NCBI RefSeq assembly: GCF_004367585.1
Contig: NZ_CP038015.1
Span: 3,835,001 to 3,892,500, forward strand
DNA length: 57,500 nt
Source: Paenisporosarcina antarctica
GTDB lineage: Bacteria > Bacillota > Bacilli > Bacillales_A > Planococcaceae
Direction of reading: 5' to 3'
The number at the start of each line of letters is the position of its first letter. The stretch's first letter is position 1. Shown piece after piece: positions 13,916 through 34,318 of the stretch. The notes under the pieces were generated by a model, which saw only the letters and a list, made by a program, of their open reading frames with translations, was not told the origin of the DNA and did no database searches. The position numbers and the translations under genes are program-made.

Positions 13916-15307
13916 ATGTCAAATAATTCCATGAAAAACCTGTTTACCAAACCATTGAGGAATAAAAAAATTGGATTAGCTTTAGTTGTCGTTATCTTTT
14001 TCGTATCGGTTATATCAACCGTTCTATTTATAGGAACGAAAAGCACTGTCGCCTTGACTGTAAATGGCAAACAACAAGAAATTCAAACACGTGCAGATAC
14101 AGTTGGAGACTTGTTGAGCGAACAAAACATTCAAGTGTCCGAAGCAGATTTAGTGTCACCCTCAGTGAACACGACGATAGAAGATGGACTTTCGGTCGAG
14201 TGGAAACAGGCAAAAAAAATATCGATTACACTTAATGGTGATAATCAAGAAATATACACAAATGCAGAAACAGTTGGAGACTTGTTGAGTGAACAAAACA
14301 TACAAGTTTATGAGGCTGATAGAGTATCACCTTCATTGAATACGTCTATAGAAGATGGACTTTCAGTAGAGTGGGAGCAAGCGAAAGAAATTACGATTAC
14401 AGTTGATGGGGAAAAACAAACCATCAAAACAACAGATGATCAAGTAAGTGAAGTTTTAGCTAAAGCAAAGATAAAAGTTTCTGAGCATGATAAAGTATTA
14501 CCTGGTTTAGATGACAAGATAGGCTCTGATGCAAAGATTACGCTTGAAAAAGCATTTCACGTAACACTCGTAAATGGTGTTGATAAGAAAAAAGTATGGT
14601 CCACTTCAACTACTGTCGCTGACTTTTTAAAACAACAAGAGATTCATATAAATGAATTTGATCGTGTCGAACAAAGAATGGATAAACTTGTGAATCCAAA
14701 CGATGTTATACAAGTCGTTCGTGTAGAAAAGGTCACCGATGTAGTGGAAGCAGCAACAGATTTTGCTGTGGAAACCCGTAAAGATAAGAACTTGTTAAAA
14801 GGCAAAGAAAAAGTTGTACAAGAAGGTAAAAAAGGTTTAACTAAACAAACGTTTGAAATAATTTCTGAAAATGGCAAACAAGTTTCACGTATCTTAAAAA
14901 ACGAAGAAGTAGTAAAAGACTCTTCCAAGAAAGTTGTAGCTGTTGGAACGAAAGTTGTAACGGCGAGTGTTTCTCGAGGAACAACTTCTCGGGCATCTAA
15001 TACTTCACCATCTGGAGGAAAAGAATTCTACGTGTCATCAACGGCATATACAGCTTTTTGTACTGGGTGTTCAGGAATTACTGCTACAGGTATCGACCTT
15101 CGTTCAAACCCTGGATTAAAGGTAATTGCGGTTGATCCAAATGTTATTCCTCTTGGTTCTAAAGTTTGGGTAGAAGGCTACGGATATGCGATTGCCGGAG
15201 ATACTGGTGGAGCTATTAAAGGAATGAAGATTGACTTGTTTATGGCAGACAAAAATCAAGCGCTTGGATATGGTCGTAAACAAATTAAAATTAAAGTGAT
15301 TAACTAA
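13916..15307 (+). CDS. yabE: YabE-like cell-wall protein: DUF348 repeats, G5 and 3D domain (putative lytic transglycosylase)
   Basis: A 463-residue exported protein related to YabE and actinobacterial resuscitation-promoting factors. A membrane/signal segment lies at about 20-42. Four DUF348-type repeats follow (about 43-275); the first two are near-identical 57-residue copies. Then come a G5-like segment (about 275-350) and a C-terminal 3D domain (about 370-463) with the conserved aspartates in VIAVDP, IAGDTGG and KIDLF, the MltA-like catalytic fold. It probably acts on peptidoglycan at the cell surface. ATG 13916 has a perfect AAGGAGGTG; a longer frame from 13856 would start upstream of the promoter -10. 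Confidence 0.88.
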   Translation: MSNNSMKNLFTKPLRNKKIGLALVVVIFFVSVISTVLFIGTKSTVALTVNGKQQEIQTRADTVGDLLSEQNIQVSEADLVSPSVNTTIEDGLSVEWKQAKKISITLNGDNQEIYTNAETVGDLLSEQNIQVYEADRVSPSLNTSIEDGLSVEWEQAKEITITVDGEKQTIKTTDDQVSEVLAKAKIKVSEHDKVLPGLDDKIGSDAKITLEKAFHVTLVNGVDKKKVWSTSTTVADFLKQQEIHINEFDRVEQRMDKLVNPNDVIQVVRVEKVTDVVEAATDFAVETRKDKNLLKGKEKVVQEGKKGLTKQTFEIISENGKQVSRILKNEEVVKDSSKKVVAVGTKVVTASVSRGTTSRASNTSPSGGKEFYVSSTAYTAFCTGCSGITATGIDLRSNPGLKVIAVDPNVIPLGSKVWVEGYGYAIAGDTGGAIKGMKIDLFMADKNQALGYGRKQIKIKVIN

Positions 15308-27550: not shown

Positions 27551-27665
27551 TATGTCTAGCGCCAAGCTCACACTTAAGCCTAGGCCCACTAGGATGTGGG
27601 TCATAAGGGTGTTGAAAAGCTCTTAACACTTTATTTTGCGACTAGTAACCACAGGAGTAACACGA
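27551..27665 (+). repeat. Dispersed intergenic elements (GTCTAGCGCC type, then GCAGGAG copy 2)
   Basis: TGTCTAGCGCCAAGCTC with a later inverted GCCCAC/GTGGGT hairpin resembles a common Bacillaceae/Planococcaceae intergenic palindrome. It is directly followed by TTTTGCGACTAGTAACCACA and GGAGTAACACG, a diverged copy of the element also at 17664, 34085 and 50008. Confidence 0.55.
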
Positions 27666-28106
27666 AGTTCCGTATTTATCCTTACAGACCCTCATGATGA
27701 AACAATTTACCGAATCGATTCTTTAAGCGCCGGTGATGAGCTAGAGTGGAGCTTTCTACTTTTCTTAAAACATAAGAAAGCATATAAAATTGTTCTATCA
27801 AGAACTCAACCCGTTGTTCATTGTGTTTTTTGTATATGGAGAGTAACATGCTAAAACAGAATTTCTTTGATGTGACTCTCGTTAATTCGATTAATGTAAA
27901 GTCGTGATTTCCTTAGAAACGCAATTTTCCTCTCAGAGGAAGTGAATTTTGTTCAGTGCTCTATCTTTATTGAGTAATGGATTGTACATATAAATTCGTC
28001 CTTTAAATACGCGTTTGGATACTTTCATTTTATAAGAAAGGACGATTTTTTATCTTTATTTTTAAAACTATATTGTTATCACTTGATTATTTATAAACAG
28101 GTGAGT

Positions 28107-29494: not shown

Positions 29495-29534
29495 TGTTTA
29501 AGTATATGAAAGTATAGCTCTACTACTAGTCATG

Positions 29535-29600
29535 TCTAGCTCTGATGGACAGCTTTCAGCTCCGTTACTTTCGTGTACAGCTAGAGTAGGCTTTTATGCT
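29535..29600 (-). repeat. Partial reverse copy of the AAGCCTACTCTAG element before mfd
   Basis: Read on the minus strand, AAGCCTACTCTAGCTGTAC matches the left arm of the second hairpin unit behind spoVT (AAGCCTACTCTAGCTCGAC at 33924-33942). CTAGCT and AGCTAG arms (29536 and 29579) can close a hairpin. Confidence 0.5.
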
Positions 29601-29618
29601 TTTCTTAAGGAGGTTCAT

Positions 29619-33257: not shown

Positions 33258-33794
33258 ATGAAAGCAACAGGTATCGTCAGACGAATTGATGATCTCGGCC
33301 GTATTGTCATTCCAAAAGAAATTAGAAGAACCCTTCGAATTCGTGAAGGAGATCCACTCGAAATTTTTACGGACCGTGATGGAGAAGTTATATTAAAAAA
33401 GTACTCCCCAATTAGTGAACTTGGTGATTTCGCCCAAGAGTATGCAGAAACATTGTATTCAACCTTAGGGACACCCGCTTTTATTAGTGATCGAGATGAG
33501 ATGATCGCGGTGGCGGGTGTGTCAAAAAAAGATTATTTGAATCGTCGTTTATCTTCTCAAGCAGAAGACATTCTACAATTGCGTACAATTGTTTCGGAAA
33601 AAATGGAAAAAACGATAGAATGGATACCCGGGCAAGTTGAACAGGTGAAATCCTATTGTGTAGCACCAATTATTGCCGCCGGTAATCCTATAGGTGCAGT
33701 CTATTTGTTATCAAAAGTCCATTTCATTGGAGATGCAGAACTAAAAGCAGTAGAAACAGCTGCTCACTTCCTAGCCAAACAAATGGAACACTGA
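33258..33794 (+). CDS. spoVT: Stage V sporulation protein T
   Basis: A 178-residue forespore regulator that tunes sigma-G genes. The N-terminal AbrB-like swapped hairpin (MKATGIVRRIDDLGRIVIPK, about 1-50) binds DNA; the C-terminal GAF-like domain (about 58-178) gives the tetramer and possibly ligand binding. It starts at ATG 33258 behind GTGAGGC. The stop codon itself lies in the first copy of the 120-bp repeat (AACACTGA), so the array seems to have grown out of the end of this gene. Confidence 0.95.
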   Translation: MKATGIVRRIDDLGRIVIPKEIRRTLRIREGDPLEIFTDRDGEVILKKYSPISELGDFAQEYAETLYSTLGTPAFISDRDEMIAVAGVSKKDYLNRRLSSQAEDILQLRTIVSEKMEKTIEWIPGQVEQVKSYCVAPIIAAGNPIGAVYLLSKVHFIGDAELKAVETAAHFLAKQMEH

Positions 33795-34200
33795 AAAGTG
33801 GAGAAGCCCACTTTAGACCGACACCGGCGCTGGAAGAAACGACTCGAAAACTTGTTTTCGAATGAGTTTCTGAAGCTTAGGCGCGGTCTGGGCTTAGCAA
33901 CTGGCCAACACTGAAATGTGGAGAAGCCTACTCTAGCTCGACTCCTCTGGTGGAAGAAACGAATCGAAAACCCATTTTCGAATGAGTTTCTGAAGCAGAG
34001 GTGCGAGCTGGGCTTAGCAACTGGCCAACACTGAAAAGCGTAGAAGGCCATGGTAGACCGACTCCGACGTTGGAACAAGGTTTCCTCTGCGACGAGTAAC
34101 CGCAGGAGCAAATCGAATCATAAACTTGTTTTCGAATGAGGTTGTGAAACGGAGGTGCGGTCTGGCCTTCGGAGCTAGCCAACACTGAAATGTGGAACGT
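33787..34200 (+). repeat. 120-bp tandem array of long hairpins behind spoVT
   Basis: Units begin with AACACTGAAA at 33787, 33907, 34027 and 34181 (last one partial). Units 1 and 2 are exactly 120 bp; unit 3 is 154 bp because about 34 bp of another dispersed element is inserted at about 34073-34106. Each unit folds into one long hairpin. Unit 1: AAGCCC/GGGCTT, AGACCG/CGGTCT, GAAAC/GTTTC, TCGAAAA/TTTTCGA. Unit 2 has AGCTCG/CGAGCT and CCTCTG/CAGAGG in the same places; unit 3 has AAGGCC/GGCCTT, AGACCG/CGGTCT and CTCCG/CGGAG. The arms change together, so the structure is kept. A terminator follows, so the array would be the 3' part of the spoVT transcript. Confidence 0.88.
34073..34106 (+). repeat. 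Dispersed GCAGGAGCA element, copy 3, inside repeat unit 3
   Basis: CTCTGCGACGAGTAACCGCA followed by GGAGCAAA interrupts the unit relative to units 1 and 2. The core GCGACGAGTAACCGCAGGAG is shared with copies at about 17674, 27635 and (reversed) 50035. Confidence 0.65.
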
Positions 34201-34208
34201 GCCGAATG

Positions 34209-34246
34209 AAAAACGTCTTCTTAAACACTCAAGAAGACGTTTTTTT
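34209..34246 (+). terminator. Terminator after the spoVT repeat array
   Basis: AAAACGTCTTCTT pairs with AAGAAGACGTTTT across an 8-nt loop, then T residues. TATAAT at 34252-34257 just behind it could belong to a yabM promoter, but its -35 is poor. Confidence 0.88.
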
Positions 34247-34318
34247 CGTGTTATAATTAAGCCATTAATAGTACAGAAGCCCACTCTAGCCATGGCTTTA
34301 GTGGAATGAGGAAAAAGT

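What the first reader, a model, noticed from the sequence alone, without database searches (positions are those of the whole stretch)
33787..34200. Tandem 120-bp hairpin array behind spoVT with compensatory arm changes
Three and a part units start at the spoVT stop codon, two of them exactly 120 bp. Every unit folds into one long hairpin, and the arms change together: AAGCCC/GGGCTT in unit 1 against AAGGCC/GGCCTT in unit 3; AGACCG/CGGTCT in units 1 and 3 against AGCTCG/CGAGCT in unit 2; CCTCTG/CAGAGG in unit 2 against CTCCG/CGGAG in unit 3. Paired changes on both sides mean the fold, not the sequence, is kept. It lies between spoVT and a terminator, so it would be a structured 3' tail on a forespore transcript. 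It may be a new RNA or cruciform element family.
Basis: partly seen in the sequence, partly recalled or inferred. Interest (0 to 1): 0.72.

Follow-up and report, generated by a model that had tools for sequence, protein, structure and literature searches.

The report
Mobile hairpin repeats at gene ends
The three tandem hairpins behind spoVT belong to a large family of about 120-letter hairpin repeats scattered through Planococcaceae genomes, often directly behind stop codons, that keep their fold while their sequence changes and that behave like a mobile element without a known enzyme.

Summary
Window 33787-34180 carries three head-to-tail units (120, 120, 154 bp), each folding into one long hairpin. 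The paired arm changes are much stronger in a wider sample: 30 of 34 base pairs change on both sides (98 distinct copies), and the 11 best of 6,786 column pairs by mutual information are helix pairs (69 copies). The array is not specific to spoVT but one site of a dispersed family: 28 own-genome matches at E<=0.002, 9 of 9 genus genomes, 144 of 250 genomes of the order. At spoVT it is complete in 4 of 9 congeners, a relic in 2, absent in 3. Where the upstream gene is co-oriented, the element starts within -6..+8 nt of its stop codon in 27 of 50 sites, against 0 of 52 at the other end. Arrays differ by whole units between nearly identical strains. Bacillaceae-1 RNA (Rfam) often lies in the hairpin tip or directly before it. 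Best reading: a non-autonomous, fold-constrained mobile repeat, REP/BOX/bcr-like, enzyme unknown. Fold, dispersal and placement are shown; insertion and transcription are inferred.

The parts
33787..33906 (+). unit 1 (120 bp); contains the last codons and the stop of spoVT (33792-33794); model match 33791-33910, 131.5 bits
33907..34026 (+). unit 2 (120 bp), 84% identical to unit 1; model match 33911-34030, 114.6 bits
34027..34180 (+). unit 3 (154 bp), of another subtype (0.88 to L066 of another genome, 0.76 and 0.72 to units 1 and 2); model match 34031-34184, 84.3 bits
34077..34113 (+). insert at the tip of unit 3 (approximate limits) with the GCGACGAGTAACCGCAGGAGC block, which alone gives 29 further matches in the genome; in the 16 loci read it lies mostly inside a second, larger repeat family
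34181..34196 (+). start of a further, truncated unit (AACACTGAAATGTGGA)
34209..34244 (+). perfect 14-bp inverted repeat ending in a T run: probable terminator; a similar one follows the site in G002, G004, G005, G006, G007 and G008 by reading; not listed by the simple scan
33258..33794 (+). spoVT (gene in front of the array; name from recall of its sequence)
34275..34304 (+). fragment with an exact AGAAGCCCACTCTAG arm motif in the leader of the next gene
29530..29606 (-). weak relic of the same element (E 0.024), reversed, directly before what reads as the ribosome-binding site of mfd

Best explanation
The array is one site of a family of non-autonomous mobile repeats, each a single hairpin of about 120 nt with conserved ends (GAAAAGCG... 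and ...GCTAGACA). Shown: the hairpin is held by compensatory change; copies are dispersed; where the upstream gene is co-oriented they lie with their 5' end directly behind its stop codon far more often than the other end does; the spoVT site is filled in some congeners and empty in others; and tandem arrays differ by whole units between nearly identical strains. Inferred: an enzyme encoded elsewhere recognises the folded plus strand, as RNA or as single-stranded DNA, and places it 3' of A/T-rich sites, of which stop codons are the commonest tolerated ones. The need to fold for mobility is what selects for paired arms. Arrays then grow and shrink by recombination between units. Behind spoVT the array is probably transcribed up to the terminator at 34209-34244 as a stable 3' tail, but as a by-product, not the reason it exists.
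For: Covariation: 10 own copies, 17 of 34 pairs with double changes; 98 distinct copies, 93.7% of cells paired against 80.7% in shuffles, 450 double-change cells against 117, 0/500; 50 distinct copies from other genera, 90.9% against 67.1%, 451 against 133, 0/500; the top 11 of 6,786 column pairs are helix pairs. Dispersal: 28 own-genome matches at E<=0.002 (39 at E<=1); 9 of 9 same-genus and 8 of 16 other same-family genomes, 0 of 16 outside the family; 144 of 250 in the order. At spoVT complete, absent and relic in 4, 3 and 2 of 9 genomes. Polarity: 27 of 50 against 0 of 52, Fisher 3e-11. Unit gain or loss between G002 and G008 (flanks 97-100% identical): 5 against 3, 4 against 1 and 2 against 3 model matches. 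Plus-strand bias of wobble pairs: G.U 85 against A.C 45 in 69 copies. 3'-end sites other than stops: behind a tRNA (L078; L141 and L068 by reading) and in the 16S-23S spacer (L197, L250).
Against: No enzyme found. The two genomes with most matches of the 41 (G002 and G008, 56 each) have neither a Y1/RAYT-type transposase nor a reverse-transcriptase match, and no copy in 270 loci carries an insert larger than 160 bp between its arms, so no autonomous member was seen. Target-site duplication is weak (5 of 93 sites share a 5-mer, 0.4 expected), largely where a partial second copy follows. The G.U excess fades when copies are thinned to below 80% identity (50 against 40, p 0.53) and is not significant over all helices of A3 (25 against 19), only in its outer helices (12 against 1). 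In A3 the number of further pair types is no higher than in shuffles (72 against 70.4, 180 of 500). No new single insertion was caught: the one apparent swap (L099/L194) is better read as differential loss from a mixed array.
Confidence: 0.68

Rival explanations
1. A domesticated cis-acting RNA element: a hairpin 3' tail that blocks 3'-5' exonucleases or is cut by RNase III, kept because it tunes the stability of the mRNA in front of it.
For: Sense-oriented copies abut stop codons (27 of 50); plus-strand wobble bias; several slots are filled in different species whose flanks are only about 74-95% identical; the array lies before a probable terminator. In print, about half of the bcr copies of B. 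cereus were found in mRNA (84 of 165 and 62 of 155; passage of PMC3446304).
Against: Equal numbers in either orientation (++ 35, -- 36); absent or a relic at spoVT in 5 of 9 congeners; the occupant of a slot often changes subtype (identity 0.54-0.98 within slots, mean 0.79, against 0.71 between slots).
Confidence: 0.17
2. Arm matching is a by-product of hairpin-templated (quasi-palindrome) correction during replication, not of selection on the fold.
For: Most changed pairs are full Watson-Crick swaps. That hairpin arms can be copied from one another is recalled, not looked up here.
Against: Unpaired features are kept as well: the bulge after the second helix, internal loops and the ends. Such correction should erase them and would not favour G.U over A.C on one strand (85 against 45; but see the thinned sets).
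Confidence: 0.08
3. Plain tandem duplication of a local palindrome behind spoVT, with no mobility.
For: Exact 120-bp period; some other arrays are near-identical repeats (L002: three of four neighbour pairs 0.99-1.00).
Against: Relatives at many unrelated loci; unit 3 is closer to a copy in another genome (0.88) than to unit 1 (0.76) or unit 2 (0.72); no element at spoVT in 3 of 9 congeners.
Confidence: 0.03

Closest known systems
bcr1-bcr18 repeats of the Bacillus cereus group
   Same: Dispersed intergenic repeats; bcr1-3 are called MITE-like, bcr10 and bcr18 are said to have conserved secondary structure, and many copies lie in UTRs (passages of PMC3446304)
   Different: No sequence comparison with bcr1-18 was run here; this family has no complementary extreme ends, occurs in Planococcaceae, forms head-to-tail arrays and abuts stop codons
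REP / GTAG palindromes with RAYT transposases
   Same: Hairpin repeats near coding regions whose terminus often supplies a stop codon (passages of PMC3733652)
   Different: REPs are 20-40 bp with a GTAG tag; this unit is about 120 bp, has no GTAG end, and the two richest genomes lack a Y1 transposase match. That paper lists GTAG repeats in Proteobacteria, Cyanobacteria, Chloroflexi and the PVC superphylum
BOX elements of Streptococcus pneumoniae
   Same: Dispersed repeats of variable length; of 58 CDSs overlapping BOX, 36 overlap at the extreme 3' end with BOX encoding the stop codon (passages of PMC3049150)
   Different: BOX sequence, modules and covariation were not compared here
Bacillaceae-1 RNA (Rfam RF01690)
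   Same: Lies in the tip of long members or directly before the hairpin, and at least once in the same slot behind a stop codon
   Different: It is a 67-position model; the 120-nt hairpin of the window matches neither it nor any other Rfam family at gathering score

Membership tests
MITE (TIR type) | complementary terminal inverted repeats at the extreme ends | tested here: not met
   Columns 1-6 and the last 8 are unpaired; the first pairing is AGC/GCT at 7-9 with 110-112
MITE (TIR type) | target-site duplication of fixed length | tested here: inconclusive
   5 of 93 sites with a shared 5-mer against 0.4 expected, 15 with a 3-mer against 6.0; no fixed length at most sites
MITE (TIR type) | short, non-autonomous, multi-copy, dispersed | tested here: met
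   no gene-sized insert in the loci held
REP (GTAG) / RAYT | 20-40 bp palindrome with GTAG at one end | tested here: not met
   Unit about 120 bp, ends GAAAAGCG and GCTAGACA; definition from passages
REP (GTAG) / RAYT | resident Y1 tyrosine transposase | tested here: not met
   PF01797 in 5 of 9 genus genomes, none in G001, G002, G004 and G008. An ancestral enzyme lost since cannot be excluded
Rfam RNA family | match above gathering score | tested here: not met
   No match of 4227 families to 33787-34200; in a laxer scan of six related loci only RF01690 passes its gathering score
Structured element (RNA or ssDNA) | strong covariation in a wider alignment | tested here: met
   R-scape itself was not available
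bcr repeats of B. cereus | sequence similarity to bcr1-18 | not tested
   No bcr sequence was fetched
BOX elements | boxA/boxB/boxC modules | not tested
   No BOX sequence was compared
Transcribed 3' UTR element | present in RNA with the upstream gene | not testable with these tools
   No expression data

The most novel reading that the evidence does not exclude
A new class of mobile element that moves as a folded strand and is targeted to gene 3' ends (stop codons, tRNA and 16S rRNA ends), possibly coupled to transcription or to RNA 3' ends, with the Rfam orphan Bacillaceae-1 as an interchangeable module of the same system, working in genomes that hold no recognisable Y1 transposase or reverse transcriptase.
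Probability: 0.15. Interest if true: 0.82.

Novelty: new variant of a known kind. Interest (0 to 1): 0.58.

Why it matters
It gives a common structured repeat of Planococcaceae a definition (model, ends, site preference), shows what surrounds many copies of the unexplained Bacillaceae-1 RNA, and offers natural strain pairs whose hairpin arrays differ. The sharp one-sided placement at stop codons makes the question of how such repeats choose their sites directly testable.

Tried and rejected
A pseudoknot or alternative pairing of the TCTAG bulge with the 3' CTAGA: rejected, column 23 varies freely while column 114 is nearly constant.

Recent gene conversion as the cause of the L099/L194 difference: apart from itself, the G008 occupant has no match above 82% identity over 99 bp or more in either genome. 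The G002 occupant's best relative is 93%, in an array at G008:2905037-2905455 that mixes short and long units. Differential loss from a mixed array is the simpler reading; I had first read it as a cassette swap.

An autonomous copy with a gene between the arms: none among 238 arm pairs in 270 loci, largest gap 160 bp. The loci overlap in part and were fetched with a compact model, so long copies are under-sampled.

Y1 transposase and reverse transcriptase as current drivers: no match in G002 and G008. Other transposase families were not searched.

Literature: seven searches listed no paper that, by its title and the start of its abstract, describes this repeat; an eighth was aimed at bcr1. The library lacks most subscription papers, so absence in print is not claimed. 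Papers seen only as found passages: PMC3446304, PMC2864571 (one table row), PMC2267715, PMC3733652, PMC3049150.

Corrections to my own notebook: it says 17 shared slots and about 33 of 45 stop-codon sites; the recount is 15 groups, and the de-duplicated count is 27 of 50. The mechanical ORF caller was used for all placement counts.

Full report
What is there. Behind spoVT lie two exact 120-bp units (33787-33906, 33907-34026), a third of 154 bp (34027-34180), and the first 16 bp of a fourth. The spoVT stop codon (33792-33794) lies 5 bp inside unit 1. A perfect 14-bp inverted repeat ending in a T run follows at 34209-34244, though the simple terminator scan did not list it, and then a spoVB-like gene (gene names are from recall of the sequences, no family search was run on them). 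Each unit folds into one long hairpin: units 1 and 2 better than all 200 shuffles, unit 3 better than 195 of 200; the minus strands fold too (z -4.6, -2.7, -1.7). Unit 3 is longer because a block of about 34 bp sits in its tip. That block gives 29 further matches in the genome, and in the 16 loci I read it lies mostly in a second, larger repeat family.

It is a dispersed family. A DNA search of the own genome gave 43 matches; the best 14, the array included, reach into the hairpin itself. A covariance model (R1) built from ten own-genome copies gave 39 matches at E<=1 and 28 at E<=0.002 in the own genome. Among 41 genomes it matched 9 of 9 of the genus, 8 of 16 of other genera of the family and 0 of 16 outside the family; over the order, 144 of 250 genomes and 14 of 19 genera. 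The model is trained on one genome and both wide searches used stricter filters, so negatives elsewhere are weak. A strict DNA pattern found 15 named stretches, all Paenisporosarcina, with contig lengths equal to contigs of G002, G004, G005, G006 and G007; the window's genus is inferred from this.

The fold is under constraint. In alignment A2 (101 matches from 88 loci), 98 distinct rows pair in 93.7% of cells against 80.7% in shuffles and at most 49.1% when partners are slid. 30 of 34 pairs have changes on both sides, and double-change cells number 450 against 117 (0 of 500 shuffles). In A3 (51 matches from 44 loci, all from other genera of the family; three of its loci are also in A2) 90.9% of cells pair against 67.1%, and double-change cells are 451 against 133; pairs with double changes are 30 against 25.8 (2 of 500), and the number of further pair types is not above shuffles (180 of 500). 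Both alignments were fitted to the model. Mutual information with background correction, a measure that does not look at pairing, was run on 69 copies (of 101; 11 dropped for gaps, 21 as 90% or more identical to another). Helix pairs take the first 11 places of 6,786 and 18 of the first 34. The ends, the bulge after the second helix and internal loops are kept as well.

Which strand. If the plus strand is what folds, G.U should be tolerated more than A.C. In 69 copies G.U is 85 and A.C 45, where independent columns would give 234 and 189. In all 101 copies it is 126 against 57; thinned to 79, 101 against 52; thinned to 39, 50 against 40, no longer significant. In A3 the outer helices give 12 against 1 (38 copies), all helices 25 against 19. 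This leans to the plus strand but does not tell RNA from single-stranded DNA, and related copies are not independent.

Where it sits. Of 131 sites, 102 remained after removing orthologous slots; genes were called mechanically. Where the left gene is co-oriented, its stop codon lies within -6..+8 nt of the element's first G in 27 of 50 sites, with none between 8 and 43 nt. At the other end an opposite gene's stop is that close in 0 of 52. The other two arrangements give 2 of 50 and 0 of 49. Neighbour orientation is even: ++ 35, -- 36, +- 14, -+ 14. The left flank is A/T-rich without a strict motif (110 sites). Copies also lie in a tRNA-Bacillaceae-1-hairpin-tRNA row (L078) and in the 16S-23S spacer (L197, L250), and directly behind tRNA ends in L141 and L068 by reading of the flanks. 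Reversed copies at several sites lie just before a ribosome-binding site, by reading of the flanks.

Dynamics. At spoVT the unit is complete in G000, G002, G005 and G008, a relic in G006 and G007, and absent in G001, G003 and G004. G002 and G008 (97-100% identical around the compared sites) differ by whole units: 5 against 3, 4 against 1, 2 against 3 model matches, and by one degenerate unit at spoVT. At L099/L194 they hold different members, while the roughly 50-60 bp shown on either side are alike to the base. As no close donor was found and a mixed array of short and long units is present elsewhere in G008, I read this as differential loss. The window array is mixed too: unit 3 is 0.88 identical to a copy in G003 and 0.76 and 0.72 to units 1 and 2. 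Among the A2 loci, 15 groups share flanks (three of them with links by one flank only; two groups contain pairs of the near-identical strains G002 and G008). Identity of occupants within groups averages 0.79 (0.54-0.98), between groups 0.71.

Link to Bacillaceae-1. Rfam finds RF01690 inside the tip of the last unit of L002 and 20 copies in the own genome. I scanned 18 loci, picked because they had long tips or a CCCAAG-type start or lay near rRNA. Of these 14 gave 15 RF01690 matches and 4 (L007, L008, L197, L250) none. The match is in the tip in L194, L100, L105, L061 (the same locus as L204), L106, L180 and L153, and directly before the hairpin in L143, L123, L144, L156, L145 and L078 (with arm positions). 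In the own genome L166 has Bacillaceae-1 starting at the stop codon of the gene that bears the hairpin in L064, L067 and L138 (same gene judged by its end sequence). Most of the 20 own-genome copies lie, by reading, inside the second repeat family. In the 2010 paper it is listed as an RNA, not cis-regulatory (one table row of PMC2864571).

How it most likely works. I commit to a non-autonomous mobile repeat whose folded plus strand is recognised by an enzyme made elsewhere, placed behind A/T-rich gene ends, with arrays that change by recombination between units. Fold, dispersal, polarity and array differences are shown; recognition, the enzyme, insertion itself and transcription are inferred. 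No Y1 transposase or reverse transcriptase was matched in the two richest genomes, no autonomous copy was seen, and target duplication is weak. As a 3' tail on spoVT mRNA it may well stabilise or mark the transcript, but 5 of 9 congeners lack an intact copy there.

Known kinds. It works like REP, BOX and bcr repeats, of which REP and BOX are also described at gene 3' ends (passages only). It fails the tested marks of TIR MITEs and GTAG REPs; bcr and BOX sequences were not compared. I file it as a new variant of the known kind of dispersed structured repeats.

Noticed in passing
L015-L030, e.g. L018:1400-1800; own genome: A second, larger dispersed repeat family (GGCGGCGACTCCGGCGGGAAAAGCGAGACAG...) that carries the GCGACGAGTAACCGCAGGAGC block and often Bacillaceae-1 RNA; in the three of these loci scanned (L015, L017, L018) only RF01690 passed a gathering score.
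   Followed up: partly
window 27651-27766 and 29530-29606, minus strand: Two weak matches to the hairpin model (E 0.04 and 0.024) in the window; the second lies directly before what reads as the mfd ribosome-binding site and lengthens the mechanical mfd ORF at its start.
   Followed up: partly
L197, L250, L240, L241, L247-L249, L264: In other genera copies of the hairpin lie in rRNA operon spacers; in L250 one is 11 nt from the 16S end (L197 and L250 confirmed by Rfam, the others by reading of the flanks).
   Followed up: partly
window 14092-14409 and 2568-2691: Two other tandem repeats: a 171-bp period (1.9 copies, divisible by three) and a 63-bp period behind the 5S rRNA.
   Followed up: no
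G000:C1:3752493-3752720: A Y1 transposase match with three in-frame TGA codons (a broken gene) in the own genome.
   Followed up: no
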